Part shown: piece after piece, positions 6,210 to 56,968 of the stretch
How the letters are laid out: each line of letters opens with the position of its first letter
Position numbering within the stretch: the stretch's first letter is position 1
IMG/VR virus record: IMGVR_UViG_3300046507_000282
Location: 1-64,000 of that record
Reading direction: 5' to 3' (one strand)
DNA: 64,000 nt
DNA from: a virus
Notes under the pieces: model-generated
Database searches by the model: none
What the model saw: the letters and a program-made list of their open reading frames with translations, nothing else
What the model was told of the DNA's origin: nothing
Program-made: the position numbers and the translations under genes

Positions 6210-6779
6210 TTACAGGGGCCGCAGGATGGTCCCGAACTGGCGGAAGTGCTCGGCGAACCGGCCAACGTCGCTATTCGTCGTGAAGTAGAGAAACGCCTGC
6301 CCGCGCGTGTTGGCGCGCTCGGCTTTGCCGTCCGTGTTGTAGAACTGGATGCGATGGTCAGTGAAGCAGATCGCGGATGCCTGAGCGGACAGTGCGCGGA
6401 ACATGCGGGTTTCCGTGGCGTTGTTCACCAGGACGATGCCGCGCTTGAACCGCTCGTAATCGAAGGCTTCCAGAAAGCGCGTGGCCGCATCGAGCGCAGG
6501 AGCGCCGGAATACGGCGGGTTCATCCAGCAGGAACCCACCTTCGGCCACGACACGCCGCGCGTCGGGTTCGGGTTGTCGAGCGTGCAGTACACGTCGGCG
6601 CACACGATCTGCTGCGCGTCGTCGCTGCTGTACGGGTCGAATCCGATTCCGCCGAGCACGGCGCGGGCCGCCTCGATGTACTTTGGCGGCGTGAACCACG
6701 CATCGGAATCGAGCCTCTTCGCGCCCGGCGAGCTACCCACGTAGCCGAGCGCGGCAGGGTTATCGGCGCGGCGCATCAT
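6210..6779 (-). CDS. dam: Phage DNA N6-adenine methyltransferase, Dam family
   Basis: 189 residues matching the phage Dam family (PF05869-type): WFTPPKYIEAARAVLGGI near the N-terminus, FDPYSSDDA, the catalytic NPPY at 87-90, then RGIVLVNNATETRMF and ICFTDHRIQFY. It transfers a methyl group from S-adenosylmethionine to adenine in DNA and probably protects phage DNA from restriction. It overlaps the stop of the upstream Nudix/kinase-like gene by 4 bp and shares its transcript. The target sequence cannot be read from the protein. Confidence 0.88.
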   Translation of the reverse strand: MMRRADNPAALGYVGSSPGAKRLDSDAWFTPPKYIEAARAVLGGIGFDPYSSDDAQQIVCADVYCTLDNPNPTRGVSWPKVGSCWMNPPYSGAPALDAATRFLEAFDYERFKRGIVLVNNATETRMFRALSAQASAICFTDHRIQFYNTDGKAERANTRGQAFLYFTTNSDVGRFAEHFRQFGTILRPL

Positions 6780-8320
6780 TTGAGTTTCATCAGGTCGGCG
6801 CGGCGGGCGATCAGCTTGCGGGCCAGCTCCGCCTTCTGTTCGGGGTTGCCGGGCCCGAAGTCCATGACGAGCGACTTGATCTTGTCAGGGCTCACGCTCG
6901 CGACCTTGTTGACGCCGTTCAGCAGTTCCTTGTGCGTGATGCCGCCAAAGACGCTCGATGCCTGTGGATTCGTGCCGTCCGTCAGGGTGTCCAGTTCGCC
7001 CACCTTGTCGCCGAAGTGCTTGCCCTTGGGCTCGCCCTGCGCTCGAAACACCAGCGATCCGCCCACGTCCACGCGCACCGCGTTGCCGTCCCTGTCCTGC
7101 AGCAGGTTGTCATGCGCCAGCCCCACCACGTCCCAATTGGCGAGCCATGCATCCACGGCGAAGCCGTCCATGACGCTCTCGTTGCCCTCACCGAAGTCTT
7201 CGAGCTTGTCGAGCCCCGGGACGATCTTCGACGCGATGGCGGTTTTGTCGCCGACCGTGACTTCCTTCAGTTCCGGCACCTTCACGCCGGCCGCCTCGTA
7301 GAGCTTCCCAGCGAGAATCTCGTTGCGCGCGATGGCGGTTGACTTCGGGACTTTCACGTACCAGTCATGACCTTGCGGGTCTTTGAAAAAGCCGCCCGGG
7401 TTCGAGCCGAGTTGCTTGCCCGTCTTTTTCCAGTCGTCCACCGACTCGCGCAGCGGGCCGCTCGGCGTCAGGCCAGCCAGATCGGCAAGCGTGCGGTCGT
7501 ACTGGCGGTTCGCTGCGGCGTGGACCTTCCCGGGCGGCACCAGCATGACGGCCTGCGTCTCCCATCCGCAATCCGTCGGCGAGCCGCCCACGCGCCGCGC
7601 GCTGTAGTAGCGCGTCATGGTCTGGCCGCGTTCCACGTCGCCGACGAGCCCGGTAATCTCCACCTGAAGCCCGGACTCCTCAAACGCCTCTTTGATGGCC
7701 GTCGCCTGCAGATTGATGCCGTCGTCAGCGTGGCCCTTCGGGAACGTCGTGGCGTAGCCTGCAAAGCCGTTGGACGGCTTTACCATCCACACGCGGCCAT
7801 CGGGCTCGGTAATGAGCACGCCAGCGGCGGGCTCTTTGCCCTTCAGGTCCATTTCCGGTTCTTCGAGATCGGGCATTTGCCCTTCGACGTGCTCCCAGCC
7901 CTCGATGGTTTTCGGATGGCCGGTCCACGGCGCGAGAGCGACGCCATTCAGCTTCGCGGGGGCGTGGCCGCCCGGCGTGAAGGTCGCCGTCACCTGCGGA
8001 TCGTTCCAGGTGGACGTGTCGGATTGCTGCGAGGGGTATTTGACGACTACGTGCTTGCCGTCGTCGTCGCGCTTCGGATGGTTGATCGCGCCGGGCGGCA
8101 TGGCCCATGCGGGGTGCAGCGCATCCTTACCTTTCGGCTTGGACGCGAGCTTCTCGGCGGAATGCGTGGCGTTGCCGTGCAGCGAGTTGGTCCACTTTTT
8201 GGGCTGCGCTGCCTTGACGGCCTTTACCTGCTTGACTGCGCTGGTGTCGTATTCCTTGACGACCGTGCCATCGCGCTTCGTGTACTGCTTGACGTGGGCT
8301 TTGCTGAAGAGGAGGAGCAT
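6776..8320 (-). CDS. Multidomain protein: Nudix hydrolase plus kinase-like domain
   Basis: 514 residues. Near the N-terminus is KQYTKRDGTVV (11-21), a short motif shared with the 1547-residue neighbour. Residues 165-265 form a Nudix domain whose box reads GHADDGI...KEAFEESGL (196-218), keeping the KE-x-x-EE metal ligands although the first Glu of the consensus is Ile. Residues 305-510 look like a protein-kinase-type fold: YVKVPK (Lys 323), FAVDAWLANWDVVG, a catalytic-loop-like HDN (403-405) and VDVGG with Asp 418, loosely like HipA or other atypical kinases. It may be a virion-delivered 'polyvalent' effector. Substrates are unknown. Confidence 0.75.
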   Translation of the reverse strand: MLLLFSKAHVKQYTKRDGTVVKEYDTSAVKQVKAVKAAQPKKWTNSLHGNATHSAEKLASKPKGKDALHPAWAMPPGAINHPKRDDDGKHVVVKYPSQQSDTSTWNDPQVTATFTPGGHAPAKLNGVALAPWTGHPKTIEGWEHVEGQMPDLEEPEMDLKGKEPAAGVLITEPDGRVWMVKPSNGFAGYATTFPKGHADDGINLQATAIKEAFEESGLQVEITGLVGDVERGQTMTRYYSARRVGGSPTDCGWETQAVMLVPPGKVHAAANRQYDRTLADLAGLTPSGPLRESVDDWKKTGKQLGSNPGGFFKDPQGHDWYVKVPKSTAIARNEILAGKLYEAAGVKVPELKEVTVGDKTAIASKIVPGLDKLEDFGEGNESVMDGFAVDAWLANWDVVGLAHDNLLQDRDGNAVRVDVGGSLVFRAQGEPKGKHFGDKVGELDTLTDGTNPQASSVFGGITHKELLNGVNKVASVSPDKIKSLVMDFGPGNPEQKAELARKLIARRADLMKLK

Positions 8321-8369: not shown

Positions 8370-8843
8370 TTAATACTTGACGCCCAGCAGGCGCTTCGTC
8401 ACGTCATCCATCATGTCGTCCATGGTGGCCTTGATTTCCGCTTCCGGCGTGCCATCGTTCATTTCCTGCGTCAGCGTCATGGTCTGCGCCGCCACCCACA
8501 TGAAGAACCCCGTACCGGGGTCGCCAAAGGCGATAGTTTCTTCCGGAACCAGCACGCGCATGACGTTGCCGAGCCGGTTCGGCGTATTCCACGGCTGTGC
8601 ATCAAAGCGCTCGTCATGGCCTTGGAAAATATCACTGAGCAGCTTAGCCTCTGCAGTGATCGCCGGGAGCGGGTCGCGGTCGCCCTTCCCTGCGCGGAAG
8701 TCGGAGTATGCACCGATGCAGAACTTGGCGAAGTTGCGTACCAGCCACGAGACCGTGTGCAGATCGCCCAGCGACGGCTTCCCAGTCGCCACCAGGTCGT
8801 CCAGATAAAGCCCCGTCGGGGGCAGTTGCTTGGCTTCGCTCAT
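8370..8843 (-). CDS. Hypothetical 157-residue protein
   Basis: No family recognised. It is a soluble, acidic, mostly helical protein (LHTVSWLVRNFAKFCIGAYS, EIKATMDDMMDDVTKRLLG). It lies between the two large multidomain genes, overlaps the upstream one by 4 bp, and is therefore co-transcribed with it. It could be a partner or chaperone of the large protein. That is inference from position only. Confidence 0.65.
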   Translation of the reverse strand: MSEAKQLPPTGLYLDDLVATGKPSLGDLHTVSWLVRNFAKFCIGAYSDFRAGKGDRDPLPAITAEAKLLSDIFQGHDERFDAQPWNTPNRLGNVMRVLVPEETIAFGDPGTGFFMWVAAQTMTLTQEMNDGTPEAEIKATMDDMMDDVTKRLLGVKY

Positions 8844-11800
8844 TTATTCACCTTCGTAAGATTGTCAACGTAAGTCGGGTCAGGCGGCAGCATCAGAACT
8901 TCCAGTTCAAGACGCGGGGCTTTTTTGGACGACCCATGCTCAACGTCGGCGACCATTTTACGCGAAAGGACCATGAACCGCGCGCCGGGCAGCGTCGTGA
9001 TTTCCGCCTCTCCTGAGAAGCCGCCAGAACCGAATGTATCGGTCGCCGCGGCACCCTCTGCATAGTGGATCACAACACGATGCTTGCCAAACCCGCTCGT
9101 CGCCGTATCGTGCTGCGACGTACACATGGAACCCGGGTTCTGGAAAACCAGGCCCTCGGGGTTATCAAGGAACTGACTCACCATTTCATCGGACATTTCA
9201 ATCCACTTATTGATCGTCGTGCCCTCCTTGTGAGAGACAGCCGTTTTGTACAGGTCATCGAGAACCGTACGCGTTTTCTGGCCTTGGTTATCGGTTTCCT
9301 TGCCGTCGCGATACGGCTGGTTGTTCGAGCCAGAACCCTGCACCGCCTTAATGAACGTCGTAACGGTTTCTGGCAGCTTCTTAAACGCGTCGTAGGCCGC
9401 CTTCTTTGCCGCCTCTGTGAGCTTCACGCCTACGGTCTTCGGCCTGAACTTCTCAGGCGAATCCGCAACGCCCAGCGCGATCCAGAATCCCAGGCGCTCG
9501 CTTGCCTTCACGTCGGCAATCGAAACTCCATAGTCGTGCGGCTTGAACAGCGCAGACAGGGACGCCAGCGTGCTCGCCTTCTTAGCCGTGAAGTTGCGCA
9601 TCGGCTCGGGCGGGTTTGCAACCGTGTCCAGGTACGACACGACAGAGTCGTAATACTGCTTCACGTGATTCGAGCCGTGCTCACCAATCGGCTTCTTATC
9701 GCCAACAGCCTCGCCGGTCAACTTGTCAACCGGCTGAAACTGGTATTTCTTCAGCGCGATCAGGTCGCCCTTCAGCGCGAAGTCAAGGATGTCTTGCTCG
9801 GCCTTGATGTTGTGCTGTACGTACGGCTTGTCAGAGATCGGCTTGCCAGAGCCGCCCCAGTTCATGAAGTCGTGCATCGGCGGTACGAGCGCCGGGTTGA
9901 TTTTCAGGTTGCGCGGGTCCGGTTTCGCCTTATCGCCCTGCGCGCCAGCTTCCTTCTTTGCCTTGGCGGTCGGATACTGCTCGCTCATGTTGTGCTTGCG
10001 TGCGATCAACTTCGCGGCGAGGCGCGTCTTCTCGCTCGCCGAGCCCGGCCCGAACTCCATTACCAAGCCTTCGATTTCATGGTCAGGAATGTTGGCGATC
10101 TTTGCGACGGAGGCCGTGATGTCCGCGGCGCTCATTTTCCCGAACACAGCAGCCGTGTTGGCGTTCTTCGCCGGGTCCAGCATCGTCTTGAGGTCGGTTA
10201 CCTCGTTCTCGAAAGTCTGCTTCTTACCGCCTGCGCCGCCGTACAGCAGAGCGCCGCCCGCATCGATGCGCACAGCCGATCCATCGGGCTTGAAGAGGAT
10301 GTTGTCGAACCCCTTCCCGGCAGCCGGGTTGTTGCCCACCGTGTCCCAGTTCGCCAGCCATGCGTCGGCAGCGAAGCCAGACAGCAGGCCCGGCGCTTTT
10401 CCTTCGAGCAACGCGGACTTGTTCGCCACCGCGCCATCGATGATCTTCGACGCTAGCCCGATCTTGCCGCCCTGGTTGACGAGCTTGACTTCCGGAACTT
10501 CGACGCCAGCCAGCGCATACAGTTTCGTCGCAAGAAGTTCGTTTTTCACGATCTTCTCGCCGCCAGCCGGGAACTTGACGTACCACTTCTGGCCGCTCGC
10601 GTCCTCGAACGTGCCGCCCGGGTTGTAGCCTCCCTGCGGACCTACCTGCTTCCATCCATCCACGGATTCGGTTTCGGTCTTCGTCGTGCCCACCACCTTT
10701 GACGCGGCCTTCTTCGGTGCGGTAGCGGCAGCAGCCTCGCCGGCTCCTGTTGTGCCCGCCATAGCAGCCTTCAGAGCGAGCGCGTAGGCCGCCAGCGCCT
10801 TGCCGTTTTCGCTGGCATTGCCCGGCGCACCCTCTTTCCAGATTCCCCACTTGCCATCGTCCCCAGCGTCGATCATGACCTTGTGGCCGTTCGGCTTGCT
10901 GTCATAGATCGCCTTGTCGAGCCCAGCATCGCCATCCTTCAGGGCGATGGCTTGAAGCGCCTTGACCGTCTTGTTCATCTTGACGGAATTTTTGCCCTCA
11001 AACTTCGGCTTTGCTACCGACGCCACCTTCTTTACGAGTTCCTTTGGATCAGTGGCCTTCGGCTCGTCGCCACCCTGCTTGTGCCAGCGCCCATCCTTGA
11101 ACACCAGCATGCCGTCGGCACCCTGCTTCGTGTCGCCTTCCTTGGGGCCGCTATCGGCAGCGCCTGGCTGCTTCTCTGCCCACTCGGCGAGCGCGGAAGC
11201 ATATTGCTCCTCGGCGTCCTGCTGCGTCCCGGCGTCCACCTTGGCGAAGTTCTTCAGCTTCTCGATACCCTCTGCACCCTGCGTCGTCGCCCACTTCTTC
11301 AGGGTTTTGGCGGTCCCTTCATCGACGCCAGCCGACGGCTCAGGCATAACGCTCTGATCGGCTGAACCGATATGCTTCGCCTCTTCGCCCAGCGACGCGA
11401 GCGCATCCTTGGCGTATGCGGCGATCTTCTTATCATCCAGGTTGTTACCGGCGTAATCGAACGCACTGTAATAGTCCTGAAGGTTGCTCACTTGGCCGCC
11501 AACATGGCCGACGGCGCTACCCTTCGTAGTCAGGTCATGAATGGCCTTGGCGGCGTCTTTGTGAAGGTCACTCATGTCTGCGGTATCGAGGACCGGAAGC
11601 GACGGCGCAGAATCTGCGGTCATCTTCGTCGCGAGTTCGCCGATCTTCTTCGCGGCGTGCTCGGCGGTCTTCTGCATGCCGTTCTTCGCGGCGTAGGCTG
11701 CAATGTCCTTCAGCGTCTGCATGTCGCCCTTCTCGGCGGCAGCGTTGATGTCATCGAACAGGCCGCCAGTCGGCTCGGCGGCAGGCTTCGCGCCCATCGC

Positions 11801-13483
11801 GATCAGCACATTGCCGATCCAATCTTTGACTTCCGGAATGATTCCGTCTACCGCTTGCAGTTTCTTCAGGGCATCCGCATCGCCGTTGGCAGCATGCTTT
11901 GCAACAGAGTCCCATGTCTTCGGACCCATGCCATCCGGATGCGCGAGCAACGCGTCGGAAACAGCCTTCGGAAGTTCCGTGTCGGGAGCGGGAATGTCGG
12001 CTGGCGCGGACTCCATCGCGGGCTCATTGCCTTTGGCGTGCGCGAGCGCGGCATCGTAGAACGCCATCAGCGTCTTCGAGTTCGCCGTCTTGCCCTTCCA
12101 CGTGTTGCCGACCTTGCCGTTCTTCGGCGTCAGGCCGTCAGCCTTCATGTCTTCGAGCACCTGCACGTTTCCGGCTTCGGCGTGCTCTTTGATCTTCTTC
12201 GCGACTTTCGCGTAGTGCTCGGCATACTTGGTTTCGCCATCCTTGCTCGGGGCGAATTCGGGCACAGAGAGGCCGCCAGCGGTCGCTGCAGCGGCTTGCT
12301 CGCCTTGCTTGACCCAATGGCCGTCTTTGAGCACCAGCGTGCCGTCAGCGCCTTCCTTGGTATCGCCCTCTTTCGTGCCTTCGTCGGCAGCAGCGACCTT
12401 CGACGCGGCCAGCTTCTTCGACTCGGCCGCCAAGTGAGCGGTCGTAGCTTCAGACGGCTTTGCTGGGTTGAGCCACGACGGAGTCGGCTTCGCATCGGGC
12501 GCGGCGGCAGCGGGCTCCTGTTTCTTCTCACCTTCGTCCTTCAGCGCTGCATGCTCGCCCATCTTTTGGCCGGGCGCGACCGTGTGCTTCGAGCCCATCG
12601 CGGCGAGCGCCTCGTTGGCGAGCTTTGCAGCCTGCTTGCCGTACGTGTGCGACTGATAGCCGTGATTCAGGATGTCTTTCGGGTTGTCCGTCACCAGCGC
12701 GTGCGCAATCGCGTCCAGCTTCTTCTTCATGCCGGGCGTGATGTGATGGTCGGACGGCAGCTTCGCCTTGGCGGCTTCGATCTTATCGAGCACCGCGGCC
12801 TTCGCGTCGTTCTCAGCGCCGAGCTTCGCGCCCGTGGGCGGCTCTGACTTCGGTTCCGGCTTGGGCTCGGGTTTGGGTTCCGGCTTCGATTCTGGCTTGG
12901 GCTCAGGAGCGGGTGCAGCGGGCTTCGCTTCCTCTTTGGCCGCAACCACCTTCGGCGCTTCCTTTGGAGCCTCCTGCGCGGCTTCTGGCTCATCCTTGGG
13001 CGCACTCGCCTTCCATTGTTGGAAGCCCTCTGCGAACTCGTGCCACTTCCCGGCCTGCTTGAATGCCTCGCCAAACTCTTCCTGCTTCGCGCCGGGCAGC
13101 GAATGAAACGCCTTCCACTCGGCATTAATCGGCTTCTCGCCGGCAAGAATCTTTTTCTTCAGCGCGTTGGCGCGCGAGAGCATCGATGCCTTGTGTTGGA
13201 TCGCGGTCGCCTCTTTCAGGACGTGCGCCACCTTATGGTCGTGAGGCATCGCATTGAACCAGTCCTTTTTGGACAGCTTCTTATGCGCTTCCTTCTCGGT
13301 GTAGTTGCCTTGACCGGCGACAGCCTTGTGCTCGTCGTGGTCGGTCGAAACGTTGACCCAGTGCATGTGCCCGGCGACGGGCGTGCCATCGCGCTTGGTG
13401 TAGCCCGGAATCCACACCTGTTTCTTCGTCACCGCTTTCATGAAAAGCAGCAAAGGTGCGTACGGGCGAATGTCGTCGTTCAT
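8840..13483 (-). CDS. Giant polyvalent protein: helical repeats, kinase-like domain and C-terminal ADP-ribosyltransferase-like domain
   Basis: 1547 residues from ATG 13483, chosen because GGGG precedes it; an upstream in-frame GTG falls in the leader motif. The order is: a YTKRDGTPV motif (about 20-30); a Lys/Pro/Glu-rich linker with PEPKPE repeats; many short helical repeats with a GD-x-x-AL core; two copies of KEGDTK-x-GADG-x-LV-x-KDG-x-W linkers; and a kinase-like domain near 950-1170 (WYVKFPAGGEK, AWLANWDTVG, FDNILF, RIDAGGALL). The C-terminus near 1440-1510 has GSMCTSQHDTATSGFG, then GEAEITTLPGARFMVL, matching the S-T-S and E-x-E motifs of R-S-E class ADP-ribosyltransferases. It is probably an injected effector. 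Targets are unknown. Confidence 0.75.
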   Translation of the reverse strand: MNDDIRPYAPLLLFMKAVTKKQVWIPGYTKRDGTPVAGHMHWVNVSTDHDEHKAVAGQGNYTEKEAHKKLSKKDWFNAMPHDHKVAHVLKEATAIQHKASMLSRANALKKKILAGEKPINAEWKAFHSLPGAKQEEFGEAFKQAGKWHEFAEGFQQWKASAPKDEPEAAQEAPKEAPKVVAAKEEAKPAAPAPEPKPESKPEPKPEPKPEPKSEPPTGAKLGAENDAKAAVLDKIEAAKAKLPSDHHITPGMKKKLDAIAHALVTDNPKDILNHGYQSHTYGKQAAKLANEALAAMGSKHTVAPGQKMGEHAALKDEGEKKQEPAAAAPDAKPTPSWLNPAKPSEATTAHLAAESKKLAASKVAAADEGTKEGDTKEGADGTLVLKDGHWVKQGEQAAAATAGGLSVPEFAPSKDGETKYAEHYAKVAKKIKEHAEAGNVQVLEDMKADGLTPKNGKVGNTWKGKTANSKTLMAFYDAALAHAKGNEPAMESAPADIPAPDTELPKAVSDALLAHPDGMGPKTWDSVAKHAANGDADALKKLQAVDGIIPEVKDWIGNVLIAMGAKPAAEPTGGLFDDINAAAEKGDMQTLKDIAAYAAKNGMQKTAEHAAKKIGELATKMTADSAPSLPVLDTADMSDLHKDAAKAIHDLTTKGSAVGHVGGQVSNLQDYYSAFDYAGNNLDDKKIAAYAKDALASLGEEAKHIGSADQSVMPEPSAGVDEGTAKTLKKWATTQGAEGIEKLKNFAKVDAGTQQDAEEQYASALAEWAEKQPGAADSGPKEGDTKQGADGMLVFKDGRWHKQGGDEPKATDPKELVKKVASVAKPKFEGKNSVKMNKTVKALQAIALKDGDAGLDKAIYDSKPNGHKVMIDAGDDGKWGIWKEGAPGNASENGKALAAYALALKAAMAGTTGAGEAAAATAPKKAASKVVGTTKTETESVDGWKQVGPQGGYNPGGTFEDASGQKWYVKFPAGGEKIVKNELLATKLYALAGVEVPEVKLVNQGGKIGLASKIIDGAVANKSALLEGKAPGLLSGFAADAWLANWDTVGNNPAAGKGFDNILFKPDGSAVRIDAGGALLYGGAGGKKQTFENEVTDLKTMLDPAKNANTAAVFGKMSAADITASVAKIANIPDHEIEGLVMEFGPGSASEKTRLAAKLIARKHNMSEQYPTAKAKKEAGAQGDKAKPDPRNLKINPALVPPMHDFMNWGGSGKPISDKPYVQHNIKAEQDILDFALKGDLIALKKYQFQPVDKLTGEAVGDKKPIGEHGSNHVKQYYDSVVSYLDTVANPPEPMRNFTAKKASTLASLSALFKPHDYGVSIADVKASERLGFWIALGVADSPEKFRPKTVGVKLTEAAKKAAYDAFKKLPETVTTFIKAVQGSGSNNQPYRDGKETDNQGQKTRTVLDDLYKTAVSHKEGTTINKWIEMSDEMVSQFLDNPEGLVFQNPGSMCTSQHDTATSGFGKHRVVIHYAEGAAATDTFGSGGFSGEAEITTLPGARFMVLSRKMVADVEHGSSKKAPRLELEVLMLPPDPTYVDNLTKVNK

Positions 13484-13486
13484 GAG

Positions 13487-13522
13487 TACCCCATTGGAAT
13501 AGGGGTAGCTTGGCGTCACGAT
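13487..13522 (-). promoter_or_regulatory. Leader of the giant gene: motif plus hairpin hiding GGGG
   Basis: On -, GATCGTGACGCCA is followed by TACCCC-N9-GGGGTA, whose 3' arm contains the GGGG Shine-Dalgarno six bases before ATG 13483. A terminator lies directly upstream at 13540-13562, so a new transcript probably begins here. Confidence 0.5.
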
Positions 13523-13539
13523 CACACGGTTCAGAAACG

Positions 13540-13562
13540 AAAAAACCGCCCGAAGGCGGCAT
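13540..13562 (-). terminator. Rho-independent terminator (-)
   Basis: On -, CCGCC-TTCG-GGCGG followed by TTTTTT, a few bases after the FAD oxidoreductase stop codon. Confidence 0.85.
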
Positions 13563-13564
13563 TC

Positions 13565-15691
13565 TCAGTTGTAGTAGAGCGGCACTAACGCCATAGCGTC
13601 AGTCACCACATACCCGGTCGTGCCCGTGTTGCTCACGACGACCTTGTTATTTGCCGGATCGTTGGCCGTGAACGCATACGTGCCGAGCAACTTCCATGCG
13701 CCAGAAGTCGTGTTCAGTTCGTTGACGTTGATCGCCGCCTGCACTGCGCCAGCAGCCGTTACCGTGTGCGGCACCGAACCCGACCGCGTCCCGGTCGCAC
13801 CTTCCGGATAGAACACGTATGCGCTATACGTCCCGGCCTTTGGCAGGTTGAACTGGAATTCAACCGAGCACGAACCCTTGTTGGTCGATCCATCGCTCAG
13901 ATAGGTCGGGCCGAAAATGGATGCCTCGCTGAAGGTGCTAAGGGTCTGTAGTTCCTGCCACGCTCCCGCCACAACAATCTGACCGCTCCCATTAGGATCG
14001 GCGTACGTTCCAGCCGCGTTACTGCCCGGCTGAATATCGAGAACGACTGCGCCAGAAGGGTAATAGCCCATCGCTTCCTTGATCTTGTACGGGTCAACGG
14101 CTTGCACCGTCGCGCCCGTGTCGATTGCGCGGGCCGCAGCATAACCGGCTGCCTCGCCGAGTTGCATGGAGATTGGCTCAACACGAATCGATGCAAACGC
14201 CGCGTGTGACGCCGACACTGCGAAAGTGACCAGGAGGTTCGTGCATTCGGCAATTTTCGGGCAGAGCGCCTTGTAGCTGATCCAGTAGCGTCCATCAGCG
14301 CCGCCGCTCGCCGTCTTTTGAAAGAAGCCGCCTTCGAGCGCGACGAAGCCGTCATAAACGACCGTCTGGCAGTGGTGCGAGTCCATCGCGTAGAAGCCGA
14401 CTGCCACGCCATCGTTGACCGGCGCGATGCGCTGGCAGTGCTGGTCAGTCATAACGAAGTCGCCGACCATGCGCCTTCCCTCGCGTACGTAAAGCTGGCC
14501 CGGCAGGCCGCGCCGCGTCGGAATCTGCGAATATGGCGGCAGACCGAACCCGGCCAGCGTCGTCTTGATTCCAGCCGGCACGCGCGAATCTTCGCGAAGG
14601 AACTTGAACAGCCCCAGCGCCCAATCGACGTGCTGCTGATAGATGACGGCGCGCTGCGCATACGTCGCATTCGGCCATGCATCAGCGCCGCCAATGAAGT
14701 CGAGTTGCTGAAGCGCAGAGCCTGCATTCAGATCGGTCACGCCATCTTTGCAAAGGTGATCGTTGAACAGGCCGGGCGGGCTCGCGTTGTCACTCCATGC
14801 CGTGATTTGACCAGCAGCGAACTGACGACCGAGGATCTCGTAATTGAGCGGGTTGTAATTCGTCGGCTCGGGAAAGCGACGGTATGTGCCGGGGCCGCCA
14901 CTCGTTGACACGACATTCACACGGAACCCGTACGCCTGCACACGACTATCGCCCGTGCCCACGGCGGCGACTGTCGAATTCACGCCATGCAGCAATCCGG
15001 ATGCCGGCACGCCCGGCGTAACGTATGGGTCAATCTGCCATGCGCCCGCCTTGTTGTACGGCGTTACGACCCCGTTGTACGTCTCGCCGTACTGCGAATT
15101 AGCCTCACGCCCTACCGCGAACGAACACCCTGCGGCGGCCATCAAATCGCCTTCGTAGGTCGCGTCGATATAGACCGATGCGGTAACCGATAGCTGCGGC
15201 GCAGTCAGCGGCGTCAGCGCGTCTTCGAAGGTCACTGAGTCGATCTTCGTGCCCGACTTCTTTACGGCGGTCGCCACCACGCGATAGTTATTCCGCACCG
15301 CGATACGGATCGATGCGAGCATTGCCGTCAGTTGCGCGATTGTCGCTTTCGGCGAGCCGTTTAGGCTTTGCCCCCAAAAGGTCGGATAGTCCGTTGCATT
15401 CGCCGTGTAGTTCGCGCTCCAGATAGCGCGATAGAGGGTGTTGGCAAGCCCCTTCAAAACGTTGCAGTCACCGCCAGCGCGGTCGGTGTAACTAAGGCCG
15501 CCCTGCGCTGGCATGCCGCCGAATACGGCGTCAGGGTTGATTAGCTCAACCGACTTGCCATTCTGCGCGGCAGAGATCGCCGCCATGATGCCGCTAGCCG
15601 TCGCGCCATAGACACACACGTCCACGTTACGCGTTGCATAGAGGGCGTCCGCTTTGCTTTTGCTTACGCCGGGCGCGTCAAGAAATCCCAT
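13565..15691 (-). CDS. FAD-dependent oxidoreductase with C-terminal golvesin/carbohydrate-binding-like domain
   Basis: 708 residues. After a short N-terminal segment (MGFLDAPGVSKSKADALYAT) typical of tail-fibre attachment ends comes a Rossmann FAD site: DVCVYGATASGIMAAISAA (24-42), an acidic strand end VELINPDAVFGG, and later YIDATYEGDLMAAAG, as in the FAD_oxidored family (PF12831-type). Residues about 575-708 are a beta-rich domain (AGTYSAYVFYPEGATG...TGYVVTDAMALVP) resembling golvesin or xanthan-lyase C-terminal modules. With the 123-residue neighbour it occupies a tail-fibre-like position, so it may be a virion enzyme or tailspike. Substrate is unknown. It ends at a terminator. Confidence 0.8.
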   Translation of the reverse strand: MGFLDAPGVSKSKADALYATRNVDVCVYGATASGIMAAISAAQNGKSVELINPDAVFGGMPAQGGLSYTDRAGGDCNVLKGLANTLYRAIWSANYTANATDYPTFWGQSLNGSPKATIAQLTAMLASIRIAVRNNYRVVATAVKKSGTKIDSVTFEDALTPLTAPQLSVTASVYIDATYEGDLMAAAGCSFAVGREANSQYGETYNGVVTPYNKAGAWQIDPYVTPGVPASGLLHGVNSTVAAVGTGDSRVQAYGFRVNVVSTSGGPGTYRRFPEPTNYNPLNYEILGRQFAAGQITAWSDNASPPGLFNDHLCKDGVTDLNAGSALQQLDFIGGADAWPNATYAQRAVIYQQHVDWALGLFKFLREDSRVPAGIKTTLAGFGLPPYSQIPTRRGLPGQLYVREGRRMVGDFVMTDQHCQRIAPVNDGVAVGFYAMDSHHCQTVVYDGFVALEGGFFQKTASGGADGRYWISYKALCPKIAECTNLLVTFAVSASHAAFASIRVEPISMQLGEAAGYAAARAIDTGATVQAVDPYKIKEAMGYYPSGAVVLDIQPGSNAAGTYADPNGSGQIVVAGAWQELQTLSTFSEASIFGPTYLSDGSTNKGSCSVEFQFNLPKAGTYSAYVFYPEGATGTRSGSVPHTVTAAGAVQAAINVNELNTTSGAWKLLGTYAFTANDPANNKVVVSNTGTTGYVVTDAMALVPLYYN

Positions 15692-15700
15692 TGTTTTGCC

Positions 15701-16072
15701 TTACGTGATGGTGATAGCGGGTTGCGCCGTGACTGCGCCGTTGGCGTCGCGCGTGACTGCCGCCTGCGTGACGGTCTTTACGGTCGAGCCGTTGATGTAG
15801 GTCGCATGCCAAGCGTCGATTGCGCCAGGGAAAGCAGCGCTAGCAATGTCGGTAGTGAACTCGCCGGTCGAGCCATCCGGCCACACGATGCTTGCGGTGA
15901 CAATCGCGCCATTCGCGTCGCGCACGGCTTCAGTGGCGGCGAACGCCTGCGCATATGCCCATGCCAACAGCCCCGCGCTGGTCAATTGCTGCATCTTCGC
16001 AAGCGCCTGTTGCGCCTGATTCGCAGCCATGAACGCCTGCGCCAGCGAACTCTGGCTAATGTCCACAGTCAT
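15701..16072 (-). CDS. Putative tail-associated protein, 123 residues
   Basis: The helical N-terminus (SLAQAFMAANQAQQALAKMQ) could trimerise. A beta-rich second half follows with two copies of a DANGA turn (RDANGAIVTASIVWPDG; RDANGAVTAQPAITIT). Such alternating Thr/Ala repeats are common in fibre proteins. It lies 9 bp upstream of the FAD oxidoreductase in the same transcript. The role is inferred. Confidence 0.55.
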   Translation of the reverse strand: MTVDISQSSLAQAFMAANQAQQALAKMQQLTSAGLLAWAYAQAFAATEAVRDANGAIVTASIVWPDGSTGEFTTDIASAAFPGAIDAWHATYINGSTVKTVTQAAVTRDANGAVTAQPAITIT

Positions 16073-16076
16073 AGAA

Positions 16077-16116
16077 ACCCCTTCAATTCATTTACACGAA
16101 GGGTCGCGTCACGAAT
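16077..16116 (-). promoter_or_regulatory. Leader with TTCGTGACGC motif and hairpin over GAAGGGG
   Basis: On -, ATTCGTGACGCG (16116-16105) is followed by CCCTTC (16103-16098) and GAAGGG (16084-16079). The 3' arm is the Shine-Dalgarno of the gene starting at 16072. A terminator lies directly upstream (16186-16213). Confidence 0.5.
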
Positions 16117-16185: not shown

Positions 16186-16213
16186 AAAAAGGCCCGGGGA
16201 TTAGCCGGGCCTT
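16186..16213 (-). terminator. Rho-independent terminator (-)
   Basis: On -, AAGGCCCGG and CCCGGGCCTT form a hairpin followed by TTT. It ends the long run of small - strand genes starting at 23701. Between it and the gene at 16315 about 100 bases show nothing else recognisable. Confidence 0.75.
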
Positions 16214-16314
16214 CTCACTCAAGGTCTCACCCTTCGGTGTCATGGCACCATCCGGGTTCCTACTGCGACCGTGCGCCCCATGAGGCAATCGCTTTCGCGC
16301 TTGAGGACCGCAGA

Positions 16315-48770: not shown

Positions 48771-49598
48771 ATGTCCGAAGCATTCAAACGTGTTATTGAA
48801 GTCCGCGCATCCTCATGGGGCGCGCTGTTCGACTGCAGCTACAAATGGCAGGGCGAACACCTTCTCGGAATGCGCCGCCCTTCTGGCATCCGAGCACTTC
48901 TCGGCACCGCAGTTCATGCGGGAACCGCCGCATTCGATCAGGCAAAGATGGACCGCAGGCCGATCACGGCCATGGAAGCGGCAGACTATCTGCTCGAAGC
49001 GCTTCACCAGCCTACCGACGATGTCGATTACAAGCAGGACACGTCAATCAACATGCGCCAGGCCGAACAGATCGGCCTCACGCTTCTGACTAAGTACTGC
49101 CACGAAATCAGCCCGCGCTACGAATTCCGCGCCATCGAAATGAAGATGGAGCCGATGGATATCGACTGCGGCGACGGCCTGATTATCCGCCTGAAGGGAA
49201 CCATGGACCGTTCGCGCGTCGCGGAGTCGAACGACGGCGACGGCGATGTTATTCCGGACGTGAAAACGGGCGCTCGCCTGTTCGATTCTGAAGGTGGCGT
49301 TCTGCTGAAGGCGCGCTCTGCGCAGCTTGGCGCGTACTCGCTCATGTACGAGAACCAGACCGACCGCCATACCGTCGGCGGCCAGATCATCGCACTCGAA
49401 ACCGCGTCTCAAGCACGCGTCGGCGTGAGTCCAATTTTCAATGTCAAGCAGCCCATGACGGGAACGCCTACTCAGAAGGGTTTGATCGAGTACGCCGCTG
49501 GCATGTTCAAGTCCGGGGACTTTCTCCCCAATCCGCAAAGCGCGCTCTGTAGCGAGAAGTTCTGTGCGCGTTACAACACCTGCATTTTCCACGACTAA
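48771..49598 (+). CDS. PD-(D/E)XK exonuclease, RecB/Cas4-like, with probable Fe-S site
   Basis: 275 residues. GTAVHAGTAAFDQ (motif I His), GTMDRSRVAESNDG, then VIPDVKTGARL (D-x-K core), QLGAYSLMYENQ, and C-terminal cysteines CSEKFCARYNTCIF which, with Cys 22, resemble the four-Cys iron-sulfur clamp of the RecB/AddB/Cas4 nucleases. It probably degrades one strand of double-stranded DNA to supply single strands to RecT next door. Confidence 0.85.
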   Translation: MSEAFKRVIEVRASSWGALFDCSYKWQGEHLLGMRRPSGIRALLGTAVHAGTAAFDQAKMDRRPITAMEAADYLLEALHQPTDDVDYKQDTSINMRQAEQIGLTLLTKYCHEISPRYEFRAIEMKMEPMDIDCGDGLIIRLKGTMDRSRVAESNDGDGDVIPDVKTGARLFDSEGGVLLKARSAQLGAYSLMYENQTDRHTVGGQIIALETASQARVGVSPIFNVKQPMTGTPTQKGLIEYAAGMFKSGDFLPNPQSALCSEKFCARYNTCIFHD

Positions 49599-49611
49599 GA
49601 GGACTCCTGAA

Positions 49612-50886
49612 GTGGCAACCGCAATTTCAGCACTGAAGCAGCCGGAACAACAGGCTGTAGCGAAGAAGCCGAAGACGATTTTCGATCTTCTCACTGAAGA
49701 CAAGGCCCGTCGCGCGATTGCATCCGTGGCCGGTCAGTACATGACGCCTGAGCGCTTCCTGCGCCTGGCTATCAACTGCCTCAAAAAGACTCCGAAGCTC
49801 ATGGAGTGCGACCCGCAAAGCGTTCTCGGCTCGTTCATGGCGAGCGCGGCGCTCGGGCTCGAACCGAACACGGTTCTGCAGCAGGCGTTTCTGATTCCCT
49901 ACGGCGTGCGCGGCAAGATTCCCGGCACAAATGACTGGGGCATCACGCACTATGACTGCCAGTTTCAGATCGGCTATCGCGGCTTTATCACGCTGGCGCA
50001 CCGCTCGCCGCACATTACCACCATCGAAGCCGAAGCCATCCACTCGGGCGACCACTTCAAGCACCGCAAGGGCTCCGTATCCTTCCTCGAATACGAGAAG
50101 GCGCTTATCAATCGCGGCGACCTGATCGGCTCGTACGCTTACTCGAAGCTCGAAGGCGGCGGCGAGGCGGCAACCATTCTCCCGCTGGACGAAATCCACA
50201 AAATCCGCTCGCGCTCGGAAACGTATCAGGCGCTGATTCGCGGCGCGGACAAGCAGGGCTTGAAGGACTGGGAGAAAAAGAAGGCCGAAGAGAAGCTGGC
50301 CGGTACGCCGTGGGTTATGTGGGAAGACGATATGTCGGCGAAGTCAGCAATCAAAAAGCACTCGAAGCAGTTGCCGATGAATCCGGGCGACCCCATGGCC
50401 GCCGCAGTGTCGCTCGATGCCGACCGCGAAGACGGCAAGACGATTGACATGGCCGATCTCACCGACGTGGAAAAGATGCGCGCGGTCATGGAAGACGGCG
50501 ACGCACCGCCCGAAATGGCTGGCGATGCACCGGCAGCACTGACGAACGAACAAGGCGGCGAAACGCTGGACTTCGGCAGCGCGCAGCAAGGTGAGAAGGT
50601 GGACGTGGGCCACTTCAATGCGCAGCAGCGCGAGCAGGCTAAGCAGCAAGCGACGGACGTGGATTCTACGCCGAAGGGCAACGCACCAGAAGGTAGCGGT
50701 CTGGCGCAACTGGAGGCGGCGATCAAGTCGGAAACGAACACCGACGAACTCGACCTTCTGGCCGACCAAATCCGCTCGCTGGCAGCCGCAGACCAGCCGC
50801 GCATGAACAAGCTGTACCGCACTCGCCGCGCCGAACTCGCGAACGCAGGCAAGCCCGCTCAACAAGACGCTTTTTCGATGGACTAA
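49612..50886 (+). CDS. recT: RecT-family single-strand annealing protein
   Basis: 424 residues from GTG 49612 after GAGGA. The RecT core (residues 20-260) has SVAGQYMTPERFLRLAINCL, LGSFMASAALGLEPNTVLQQ, FQIGYRGFITLAHRS and WEDDMSAKSAIKKHSKQLP. It promotes annealing of complementary strands. The C-terminal 160 residues are a long acidic, Gln/Ala-rich extension (QQREQAKQQATDVDS) not needed in RecT and probably disordered. It pairs with the upstream exonuclease as in RecE/RecT. Confidence 0.92.
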   Translation: MATAISALKQPEQQAVAKKPKTIFDLLTEDKARRAIASVAGQYMTPERFLRLAINCLKKTPKLMECDPQSVLGSFMASAALGLEPNTVLQQAFLIPYGVRGKIPGTNDWGITHYDCQFQIGYRGFITLAHRSPHITTIEAEAIHSGDHFKHRKGSVSFLEYEKALINRGDLIGSYAYSKLEGGGEAATILPLDEIHKIRSRSETYQALIRGADKQGLKDWEKKKAEEKLAGTPWVMWEDDMSAKSAIKKHSKQLPMNPGDPMAAAVSLDADREDGKTIDMADLTDVEKMRAVMEDGDAPPEMAGDAPAALTNEQGGETLDFGSAQQGEKVDVGHFNAQQREQAKQQATDVDSTPKGNAPEGSGLAQLEAAIKSETNTDELDLLADQIRSLAAADQPRMNKLYRTRRAELANAGKPAQQDAFSMD

Positions 50887-55637: not shown

Positions 55638-55885
55638 CATCAAATTCACTGAGGCCGGAATTCCTTTGCGTACCGGGCGTTCCGGACAAGTGATCGTTCC
55701 CATCCATCATCGGGGCCACAGATACTCGTCTTGGCGTTGATTTCATTGAGAATCCAGATAATTCAAGGGTTTCAGCCCCACTCCATCGGTGCAACATTCA
55801 TGCGGGTTTACGTGAGTTTTTGCAGGTTTCAGAGGACTGGGGTAACATTGTTGCACCACTCCCCACTCCTGTTACACCGAAAACC
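55638..55885. other. Candidate attP region with repeated arm-type sites
   Basis: GGTGCAACA occurs at 55620 and 55788, its inverse TGTTGCACC at 55849, and a variant TGTTACACC at 55870. GGGTAACAT occurs at 55632 and 55840. Such paired repeats beside an integrase gene look like integrase or excisionase arm sites. The core crossover sequence cannot be identified without the host. No gene seen in this 248-bp gap. Confidence 0.5.
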
Positions 55886-56968
55886 ATGGGCACAATCATG
55901 CAACGCGTCCGAAAGGACGGAAGCATAGGATACACCGCAGTCGTTCGCGTCAAGCGCGGCGGAAAGGTCATCCACACCGAGACTGAGACCTTCGACCGCG
56001 AGCCGCCCGCGAAGGCATGGATCGCAAAGCGCGAAAAAGTGCTGGCCGCGCCGGGCGGAATCGAGAGCGTCGTGAAAGAGGACCCAACCCTTTCCGAGGC
56101 GATAAAGCGCTATAAGAAAGAGTCGAAAAAGGACATTGGTCGGACGAAAGCCCAAGTCCTGCGCTGCATAGAAGAGGCTGAAATTGGCGCGCTGAAGTGC
56201 TCTGAGGTAACGAGCCAGACAATCGTCGCATTCGCCCACGAACTCAAGGTGAAGCCTCAGACCGTCAGTAACTATGTCTCTCACCTGGCCGCCGTCTTCA
56301 CCGTCGCGAAACCGGCTTGGGGCTACCCGCTCGAAATGCAGCAGATAAACGATGCGCGAGTGGTCCTGAAGAAACTGGGCTCAAGCAGCCGATCACGGGA
56401 GCGCGACCGCCGCCCGACAGTCGGCGAAATGGACCATATCCTCGCCCACTACGCAGAAATGGAAAAGCGCGAGCGGGCCGAAATCCCGATGATCAAGATC
56501 ATCCTGTTCGCGATGTTCTCGGCTCGCCGCCAGGAAGAAATCTGCCGACTCGCGTGGGCCGACTACGAGGGAGACCGCGCGCTGGTACGCGACATGAAGC
56601 ACCCGGGCCAGAAGATCGGGAACGATACTTGGGTTGACCTTCCGCCCGAAGCGCGGCGCATTATTGACTCGATGCCACGCACCGGGGCGCTGCTGTTCCC
56701 GTACAACCACCGGAGCGTCAGCGCGAGCTTCACAAAGGCTACCAGCTTCCTCTCAATAGACGACCTTCATTTCCACGATCTGAGGCACGAGGGAGCCTCT
56801 AGGCTGTTCGAGCTAGGCTGGAACATCCCGCACGTCGCCGCAGTCACCGGGCACCGCTCATGGGCGTCCCTGAAGCGCTATTCGCACCTGCGCCAGACCG
56901 GCGACAAGTGGGCGGGCTGGGAATGGATCGAAAATCTGCAAGACGCATCGCAAAACGTAGCCGCTTGA
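55886..56968 (+). CDS. int: Tyrosine recombinase (phage integrase)
   Basis: 360 residues from ATG 55886 (MGTIMQRVRKDGSIGYTAVV). An N-terminal arm-binding three-strand domain (residues 4-50), a SAM-like core-binding domain (about 65-170) and a catalytic domain. Catalytic residues: Arg in FSARRQEEICRL (about 214), Lys in DMKHPGQK, HDLRH (about 298), GHRSW (about 322), and nucleophile Tyr 332 in KRYSHL. It integrates and excises phage DNA. Confidence 0.95.
   Translation: MGTIMQRVRKDGSIGYTAVVRVKRGGKVIHTETETFDREPPAKAWIAKREKVLAAPGGIESVVKEDPTLSEAIKRYKKESKKDIGRTKAQVLRCIEEAEIGALKCSEVTSQTIVAFAHELKVKPQTVSNYVSHLAAVFTVAKPAWGYPLEMQQINDARVVLKKLGSSSRSRERDRRPTVGEMDHILAHYAEMEKRERAEIPMIKIILFAMFSARRQEEICRLAWADYEGDRALVRDMKHPGQKIGNDTWVDLPPEARRIIDSMPRTGALLFPYNHRSVSASFTKATSFLSIDDLHFHDLRHEGASRLFELGWNIPHVAAVTGHRSWASLKRYSHLRQTGDKWAGWEWIENLQDASQNVAA

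What the first reader, a model, noticed from the sequence alone, without database searches (positions are those of the whole stretch)
13565..15691. FAD-dependent oxidoreductase in a tail-fibre-like position
A 708-residue protein with an intact FAD site and a C-terminal golvesin-like beta domain sits after a small fibre-like gene and begins with a short fibre-type N-terminus. A redox enzyme carried on the virion or made late in infection is unusual. It might modify surface polysaccharide or generate peroxide.
Basis: partly seen in the sequence, partly recalled or inferred. Interest (0 to 1): 0.6.

Follow-up and report, generated by a model that had tools for sequence, protein, structure and literature searches.

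The report
Flavin enzyme in phage surface-enzyme cassette
This phage carries a flavin-dependent redox enzyme in the swappable two-gene slot where related phages carry enzymes that act on the bacterial surface coat, so it is probably a virus-particle enzyme that oxidises the host's surface sugars, a type of chemistry not described for phage particles in the papers searched.

Summary
The 708-aa ORF is real. It lies on the minus strand: adaptor residues 1-21, PF12831 FAD_oxidored 24-540, Golvesin_C 566-703. It is under strong purifying selection (dN/dS about 0.08) and keeps 89% of the columns that are near-invariant in bacterial relatives.

The gene upstream and the N-terminus MGFLDAPGVSKSKAD form a widespread phage cassette. 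The same small-protein C-terminal domain sits directly before MGxLDAPG-starting proteins in many phages. Thirty-one such cargos gave GDSL/SGNH esterases, pectate-lyase, BNR, GH43 and deacetylase domains, and no other flavoenzyme. The cassette follows the same upstream motif as portal, tape-measure, terminase and holin genes. PF12831 domains are also fused to other phage N-termini, once to a tail-fibre shaft beside a collar gene. Most bacterial relatives have a signal-peptide-like N-terminus; some lie in SusC/SusD-type loci. The phage protein lacks such a segment.

Best reading: a late, virion-displayed flavoenzyme that oxidises host surface glycan. Not shown: presence in the virion, bound FAD, substrate, reaction. 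In this genome it is not in the tail-gene cluster.

The parts
13565..15691 (-). 708-aa protein: phage adaptor N-terminus + FAD_oxidored + Golvesin_C
   Evidence: ORF; Pfam; AlphaFold model pLDDT 85.4, pTM 0.87; dN/dS 0.075-0.095 over the whole gene among the four close orthologues
15629..15691 (-). Residues 1-21, MGFLDAPGVSKSKADALYATR: adaptor peptide shared with phage surface enzymes
   Evidence: replaced by a different N-terminus in orthologue L004
14072..15622 (-). FAD_oxidored domain (PF12831), residues 24-540
   Evidence: E 1.2e-76; conserved columns; fold
15590..15607 (-). Dinucleotide-binding loop G-A-T-A-S-G, residues 29-34
   Evidence: G29 invariant; T31 and G34 near-invariant in the family
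13583..13996 (-). Golvesin_C beta domain, residues 566-703; the only close solved relative is the C-terminal domain of Paenibacillus xanthan lyase
15701..16072 (-). 123-aa partner gene: helix 7-41 + beta module; C-terminal part homologous to the end of minor tail proteins of Arthrobacter and Gordonia phages
16104..16114 (-). Motif TCGTGACGCGA, 42 nt before the partner gene, shared with portal, tape measure, tail, TerL and holin genes
   Evidence: 12 copies against 1.7 expected
16186..16216 (-). Terminator-like hairpin upstream of the cassette (12-bp stem, T run)
   Evidence: 5 terminator-like sites found, 4.2 expected in shuffles; weak alone
13545..13560 (-). Terminator-like hairpin directly after the stop codon
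   Evidence: same caveat

Best explanation
The two genes 16072-13565 are a late-expressed receptor-binding-enzyme cassette. The 123-aa protein (helix plus beta module) and the first ~20 residues of the 708-aa protein form the attachment to the virion. The payload is a secreted-type bacterial flavoenzyme, FAD_oxidored plus Golvesin, that has lost its signal peptide. FAD is loaded in the infected cell before release. On contact the virion-borne enzyme binds host surface glycan (capsule, exopolysaccharide or O-antigen) and oxidises a sugar hydroxyl, giving a keto sugar that alters or weakens the barrier; the flavin is re-oxidised by O2 or a surface quinone. Shown here: the domains, the cassette homology, cargo swapping, the late-type motif, the fusion to a tail-fibre N-terminus in another phage, purifying selection, signal-peptide-like N-termini in bacterial relatives. 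Inferred: virion location, FAD occupancy, glycan substrate, the reaction and the electron acceptor.
For: (1) The partner module alone was used as query: in 21 of 22 viral loci where the next gene could be read, that gene begins M[GS][IVL]LDxP. The reciprocal DNA search for MGxLDAPG, independent of the module, gave 16 loci with the module directly upstream. (2) Pfam on 31 cargos: GDSL/SGNH 15, rhamnogalacturonase/pectate lyase 2, BNR, GH43, polysaccharide deacetylase, beta-helix; named examples are Hum25 gp26 esterase, MoiGyank gp6 hydrolase and Phistory gp36 minor tail protein. (3) The same FAD payload (81-83% identity) sits in otherwise largely different phages with changed N-termini. (4) Other phage FAD proteins carry other N-terminal parts: L126 has a tail-fibre N-terminus and lies next to a collar fibre gene; Rhizobium phages and L121-L123, L128 have about 290 or more extra residues and lie among head, tail or lysis genes. 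(5) The late motif stands before portal, TMP, head-tail, tail, TerL, holin and this cassette. (6) 65 of 79 bacterial relatives have a hydrophobic N-terminal segment; the phage protein does not. (7) Neighbours of bacterial relatives include SusD, GH42, GH3, sulfatase; two plasmid loci read ECF sigma-FecR-TonB receptor(-SusD)-FAD enzyme. (8) dN/dS 0.06-0.08 in the FAD domain; 89% of the most conserved columns kept.
Against: No proteomics. In this genome the cassette is about 40-50 kb from tail and fibre genes and stands next to ADP-ribosyltransferase and NUDIX genes. The adaptor peptide is short (~20 aa). Eight family-typical residues are changed (F112G, E113S, N323A, S328Q, D388S, E389Q, R443T, N452L), so substrate or activity could have shifted. 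Neighbour counts for the bacterial relatives are modest and were not compared with a background. No PF12831 enzyme with a known substrate was found.
Confidence: 0.6

Rival explanations
1. The flavoenzyme fold is used only as a carbohydrate-binding head; it is displayed on the virion but catalytically dead.
For: Some family-typical residues are changed; Golvesin_C could bind glycans, as its relative sits at the end of xanthan lyase.
Against: 89% of columns at least 98% conserved in bacteria are kept despite ~37% overall identity; the dinucleotide motif and the DxxYEGD, GRE, VREGRR, MDSH and SASH segments are intact; dN/dS 0.06-0.08.
Confidence: 0.13
2. A cytoplasmic or ejected enzyme that alters host metabolism or redox state during infection, grouped with the neighbouring ADP-ribosyltransferase and NUDIX proteins.
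For: In this genome the cassette lies directly before the ADP-ribosyltransferase homologue and the NUDIX gene, which carry the same late motif.
Against: In orthologous phages the cassette is beside TerL (L002) or in a fibre gene cluster (L003) and not with an ADP-ribosyltransferase; the adaptor is shared with surface enzymes; the bacterial relatives look secreted.
Confidence: 0.12
3. A virion-borne oxidase whose useful product is hydrogen peroxide (local killing or sensitising).
For: Many FAD oxidoreductases can use O2; a virion has no soluble acceptor (general knowledge).
Against: No oxidase signature can be read from sequence; the nearest folds include reductases and dehydrogenases (flavocytochrome c3, ketosteroid dehydrogenase), weak global TM 0.2-0.3.
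Confidence: 0.08
4. A lysogenic-conversion gene (moron) that changes the lysogen, not a virion part.
For: The unit is flanked by terminator-like hairpins and the phage encodes an integrase-like protein.
Against: The upstream motif is that of the structural genes; no signal peptide for export; the terminator scan is near chance level.
Confidence: 0.07

Closest known systems
Two-gene tail cassettes of Arthrobacter and Gordonia phages (Hum25 gp25 + gp26 esterase; MoiGyank gp5 + gp6 hydrolase; Phistory gp35 + gp36)
   Same: Homologous C-terminal module in the upstream protein, start MG(I/L)LDxP in the downstream one, contiguous genes
   Different: Their cargo is an SGNH esterase/hydrolase or a NodB-type deacetylase; none carries a flavoenzyme
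FAD oxidoreductase-like proteins of Rhizobium phages RHph_Y55, RHph_I72, RHph_N3_19
   Same: PF12831 domain in ~850-aa proteins encoded beside portal and head genes
   Different: 30-34% identity, a different ~290-aa N-terminal part, no Golvesin_C, no partner gene of this type
Bacterial secreted FAD_oxidored + Golvesin_C proteins (Planctomycetota, Verrucomicrobiota, Bacteroidota)
   Same: Same two-domain order, about 31-42% identity, conserved family residues
   Different: They begin with a signal-peptide-like segment; the phage protein begins with a virion-type adaptor; substrates unknown
Virion-associated polysaccharide enzymes (review PMC5380687: hydrolases EC 3 and lyases EC 4; SGNH deacetylase RBPs, PMC13123978, with phage G7C gp63.1 cited there)
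   Same: Receptor-proximal, swappable, act on surface glycan, may modify without cutting the chain
   Different: Hydrolytic or eliminative chemistry; the review names no oxidoreductase or oxidase, and the 2026 survey does not contain the word oxidoreductase
Flavocytochrome c3 fumarate reductase, Thi4, 3-ketosteroid dehydrogenase (fold level)
   Same: Rossmann-type FAD-binding core, Foldseek E down to 2e-11
   Different: TM normalised by query about 0.2-0.25, 10-18% identity; the rest of the protein is not matched

Membership tests
PF12831 FAD_oxidored | Profile score above the curated cut-off over nearly the whole model | tested here: met
   259 bits against 27; model 1-415 of 416
PF12831 FAD_oxidored | Dinucleotide-binding motif and family-invariant residues | tested here: met
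   GATASG; 89% of columns at least 98% conserved in bacteria are kept
PF12831 FAD_oxidored | Bound FAD and redox activity | not testable with these tools
   needs purified protein
PF25275 Golvesin_C | Profile score above cut-off, full domain | tested here: met
   59.7 bits against 31.6, model 5-131 of 132
MGxLDAPG two-gene phage cassette (defined here) | Upstream partner module and MG(x)LDAPG N-terminus in adjacent genes | tested here: met
Phage receptor-binding enzyme / depolymerase | Part of the virion | not testable with these tools
   no proteomics; supported indirectly by the cassette and by the L126 fusion
Phage receptor-binding enzyme / depolymerase | Encoded in the tail-fibre gene cluster | tested here: not met
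   not in this genome; met in L003, and for the wider family in L126
Phage receptor-binding enzyme / depolymerase | Expressed with late structural genes | tested here: inconclusive
   shared upstream motif, 12 against 1.7 expected; no transcription data
Classical tailspike depolymerase | Right-handed beta-helix fold | tested here: not met
   the model is a flavoprotein fold plus a beta domain
Moron / lysogenic conversion gene | Own promoter and terminator, expressed in lysogen | tested here: inconclusive
   terminator-like hairpins at both ends, but the motif is shared with structural genes
Anti-phage defence protein | Match to PADLOC models | tested here: not met
   no match at E 0.01

The most novel reading that the evidence does not exclude
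Phages carry a third chemical class of receptor-directed virion enzyme, oxidoreductases (EC 1), beside hydrolases and lyases: a flavoenzyme domain that has been attached to several different tail or structural N-terminal parts and oxidises host surface glycans to allow or control adsorption.
Probability: 0.5. Interest if true: 0.8.

Novelty: new variant of a known kind. Interest (0 to 1): 0.62.

Why it matters
Virion-borne polysaccharide enzymes are described as hydrolases or lyases, plus deacetylases that modify without cutting (PMC5380687, PMC13123978). A redox cargo in the same slot would add a third chemistry, suggest that oxidised surface sugars matter for adsorption, and give an experimental handle on a large secreted bacterial flavoenzyme family (PF12831) for which no substrate turned up in this work. 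It also shows that the function of an unannotated phage gene can be read from the cassette it sits in.

Tried and rejected
PHROGs had no family for the protein. phmmer against PDB found only the Golvesin part; profile search gave only weak Rossmann matches besides it. NCBIfam gave only short N-terminal matches far below cut-off; PADLOC nothing. Foldseek of the 123-aa partner gave nothing significant, so its fold is not assigned. The tree puts all phage rows on one side of a branch but with support 41 and very long branches (L124, L125, L126), so the number of captures is not resolved. A phylum-wide search meant for Proteobacteria returned hits like the Bacteroidota enzymes and gave no host information. 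The terminator scan is close to the shuffle level and is used only as a hint. Literature searches for flavoenzymes in tailspikes or receptor-binding proteins found no paper; the one mention of an FAD-dependent oxidoreductase in alphaproteobacterial phages is a list entry for T4-like phages. First considered and dropped: an auxiliary metabolic gene, because of the adaptor and the secreted-type relatives.

Full report
WHAT IS THERE. The window is bases 1-64000 of a 93,887-bp virus record. The ORF 13565-15691 is on the minus strand, starts with ATG and encodes 708 aa; the plus strand is full of stops. Pfam gives FAD_oxidored at 24-540 (E 1.2e-76, model 1-415 of 416) and Golvesin_C at 566-703 (E 4e-16). 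An AlphaFold model built on 61 homologues has mean pLDDT 85 and pTM 0.87; the FAD-binding beta-alpha-beta unit is predicted with block pLDDT about 96-97, while residues 1-9 have pLDDT under 50. Foldseek finds xanthan lyase for the C-terminal domain and flavocytochrome c3, Thi4 and ketosteroid dehydrogenase for the flavoprotein core; the rest has no good solved match.

IS IT A WORKING GENE. Orthologues in three other viral contigs are 81-83% identical. Pairwise dN/dS is 0.075-0.095 over the whole gene, 0.06-0.08 in the FAD domain and 0.055-0.12 in the Golvesin domain (synonymous sites are near saturation, so these are rough). Of 79 alignment columns at least 98% conserved in bacterial relatives, 89% are kept, against about 37% identity overall. 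Eight otherwise well conserved positions differ (F112G, E113S, N323A, S328Q, D388S, E389Q, R443T, N452L), so the substrate may have changed.

THE CASSETTE. Nine bases upstream ends a 123-aa gene. Its C-terminal ~73-90 residues match the ends of minor tail or hypothetical proteins in 41 Arthrobacter and Gordonia phage records. In Arthrobacter phage Hum25 the next gene is an esterase whose N-terminus matches the N-terminus of the window protein. This was tested in both directions. Starting from the partner module alone, 23 viral loci were fetched; in 21 of the 22 whose next gene could be read, that gene begins M[GS][IVL]LDxP. Two of these are cut by the contig end shortly after the match, L032 ends before a next gene, and in the exception, L021, the next gene is a second copy of the module. 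Starting from a degenerate DNA pattern for MGxLDAPG alone, 31 stretches were found; 16 have the module directly upstream, one is orthologue L002 itself with its upstream side cut off, and most of the rest are short or unrelated ORFs. Of 31 cargo proteins, 15 match GDSL_2, two the rhamnogalacturonase/pectate lyase family, and single ones BNR, GH43, polysaccharide deacetylase and beta-helix. M1, L4, D5 and P7 are invariant. Genes near such cassettes include portal, neck, tail, fibre and endolysin families. hhalign aligns residues 1-18 with the cargo profile at 78% identity, E 0.0085. The only flavoenzyme cargos are the window protein and orthologues L002 and L003.

MOBILITY OF THE PAYLOAD. The orthologue-bearing contigs share few other genes with this genome. 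In L002 the cassette directly follows TerL. In L003 it lies in a run with a fibre-like 203-aa gene and a 976-aa phrog_37372 protein. In L004 the partner and the adaptor are missing and the payload begins with another short N-terminus after a lysozyme-like gene. Outside this group, PF12831 domains occur in Rhizobium phages next to portal and head genes with a different ~290-aa N-terminal part and in viral contigs L121-L123, L125, L127 and L128. Contig L126 encodes 887 aa with a tail-fibre-type N-terminus (phrog_38670, 2.6e-5; phrog_13481, 9e-5) fused to FAD_oxidored, next to a tail collar fibre gene (phrog_523, 3e-41). One viral copy, L124, instead begins with a signal-like segment with twin arginines, so not every viral copy is virion-type.

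EXPRESSION. The motif TCGTGACG[CT][CG]A occurs 11 times on the minus strand (12 hits in all with a slightly looser pattern, 1.7 expected in shuffles). Each minus-strand copy lies about 20-56 nt before a gene start: portal (89171), a head-tail gene (79897), tape measure (75753), a tail gene (69716), a holin-like gene (60981), TerL (2963), a 77-aa gene, the NUDIX gene, the ADP-ribosyltransferase homologue, a 93-aa gene, and this cassette (16114, 42 nt before the partner ATG). L002 has the motif 35 nt before its partner gene. This makes late co-expression likely; it is sequence evidence only. It also suggests that the ADP-ribosyltransferase ORF starts at about 13483 rather than 13525.

BACTERIAL RELATIVES. 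The best genomic relatives (80 loci) come mostly from Planctomycetota, Verrucomicrobiota and Bacteroidota; most cover both domains, 31-39% identical in the best segment. 65 of 79 have a hydrophobic stretch of signal-peptide strength before the domain; the four closely related phage proteins have none. Among 88 immediate neighbours, Pfam finds further FAD_oxidored genes (10), GH42 (5), SusD (4), sulfatase (3), Gfo/Idh/MocA (3) and GH3 (2); no background was computed. Two plasmid loci read ECF sigma - FecR - TonB receptor - FAD enzyme (Sphingobium) and the same with SusD and two FAD enzymes in a row (Spirosoma). The family therefore looks like an extracytoplasmic enzyme, in part tied to glycan uptake.

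MECHANISM. The most economical reading is an extracellular-type enzyme delivered by the virion instead of by a signal peptide, in a slot otherwise used for esterases, lyases and deacetylases. FAD would be bound during assembly. Sugar oxidation is the inferred reaction; O2 or quinone as acceptor is a guess. None of the chemistry is shown.

KNOWN OR NEW. Both component kinds (phage surface-enzyme cassettes; secreted FAD_oxidored-Golvesin proteins) exist in databases; their combination was not found in the papers searched. The Rhizobium phage genes carry the name FAD dependent oxidoreductase in GenBank. I therefore call it a new variant of a known kind. Limits: the library lacks most subscription papers; the host is unknown (nearest terminases are from ~86-95 kb phages of Aeromonas, Pseudomonas, Enterobacter, Yersinia, Morganella and Bordetella).

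Noticed in passing
window 8840-13525 (-): 1561-aa protein with weak HipA_C match; its C-terminal half is 44% identical to the ADP-ribosyltransferase ST4_109 of Aeromonas phage ST4. A late motif suggests a start at about 13483.
   Followed up: partly
window 6776-8320 (-): 514-aa protein: NUDIX domain followed by a segment resembling the HipA-like part of the neighbouring 1561-aa protein (by eye).
   Followed up: no
16114, 13521, 8362, 3251, 2963 (-) and six further minus-strand sites in the genome: Motif TCGTGACG[CT][CG]A before late genes, a likely late promoter or activator site of this phage group; single or few copies also in L002, Bordetella phage PHB04 and Pseudomonas phage Dolphis.
   Followed up: partly
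window 55820-56968 (+): Integrase-like gene (phrog_1, E 5e-42) in a genome whose terminase relatives are mainly from large phages; RecT-like gene nearby at 49564-50886.
   Followed up: no
L003:6185-9115: 976-aa protein (phrog_37372, E 2e-216, unknown function) in a fibre gene run; by eye its middle resembles GH114-like glycosidases.
   Followed up: no
L178:8590-10338 (Rhizobium sp. AB2/73 plasmid): An FAD-dependent oxidoreductase of this family lies between a VirA-like sensor kinase gene and the virB1 gene of a type IV secretion operon.
   Followed up: no
L179:8932-10512 (Pararhizobium qamdonense plasmid): A relative directly follows a type II secretion operon, which fits a secreted enzyme.
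   Followed up: no
genome 91272-92486 (+), L009:7272-8486: RtcB RNA ligase homologue, 73% identical to that of Bordetella phage PHB04, in a plus-strand block between portal and terminase.
   Followed up: no
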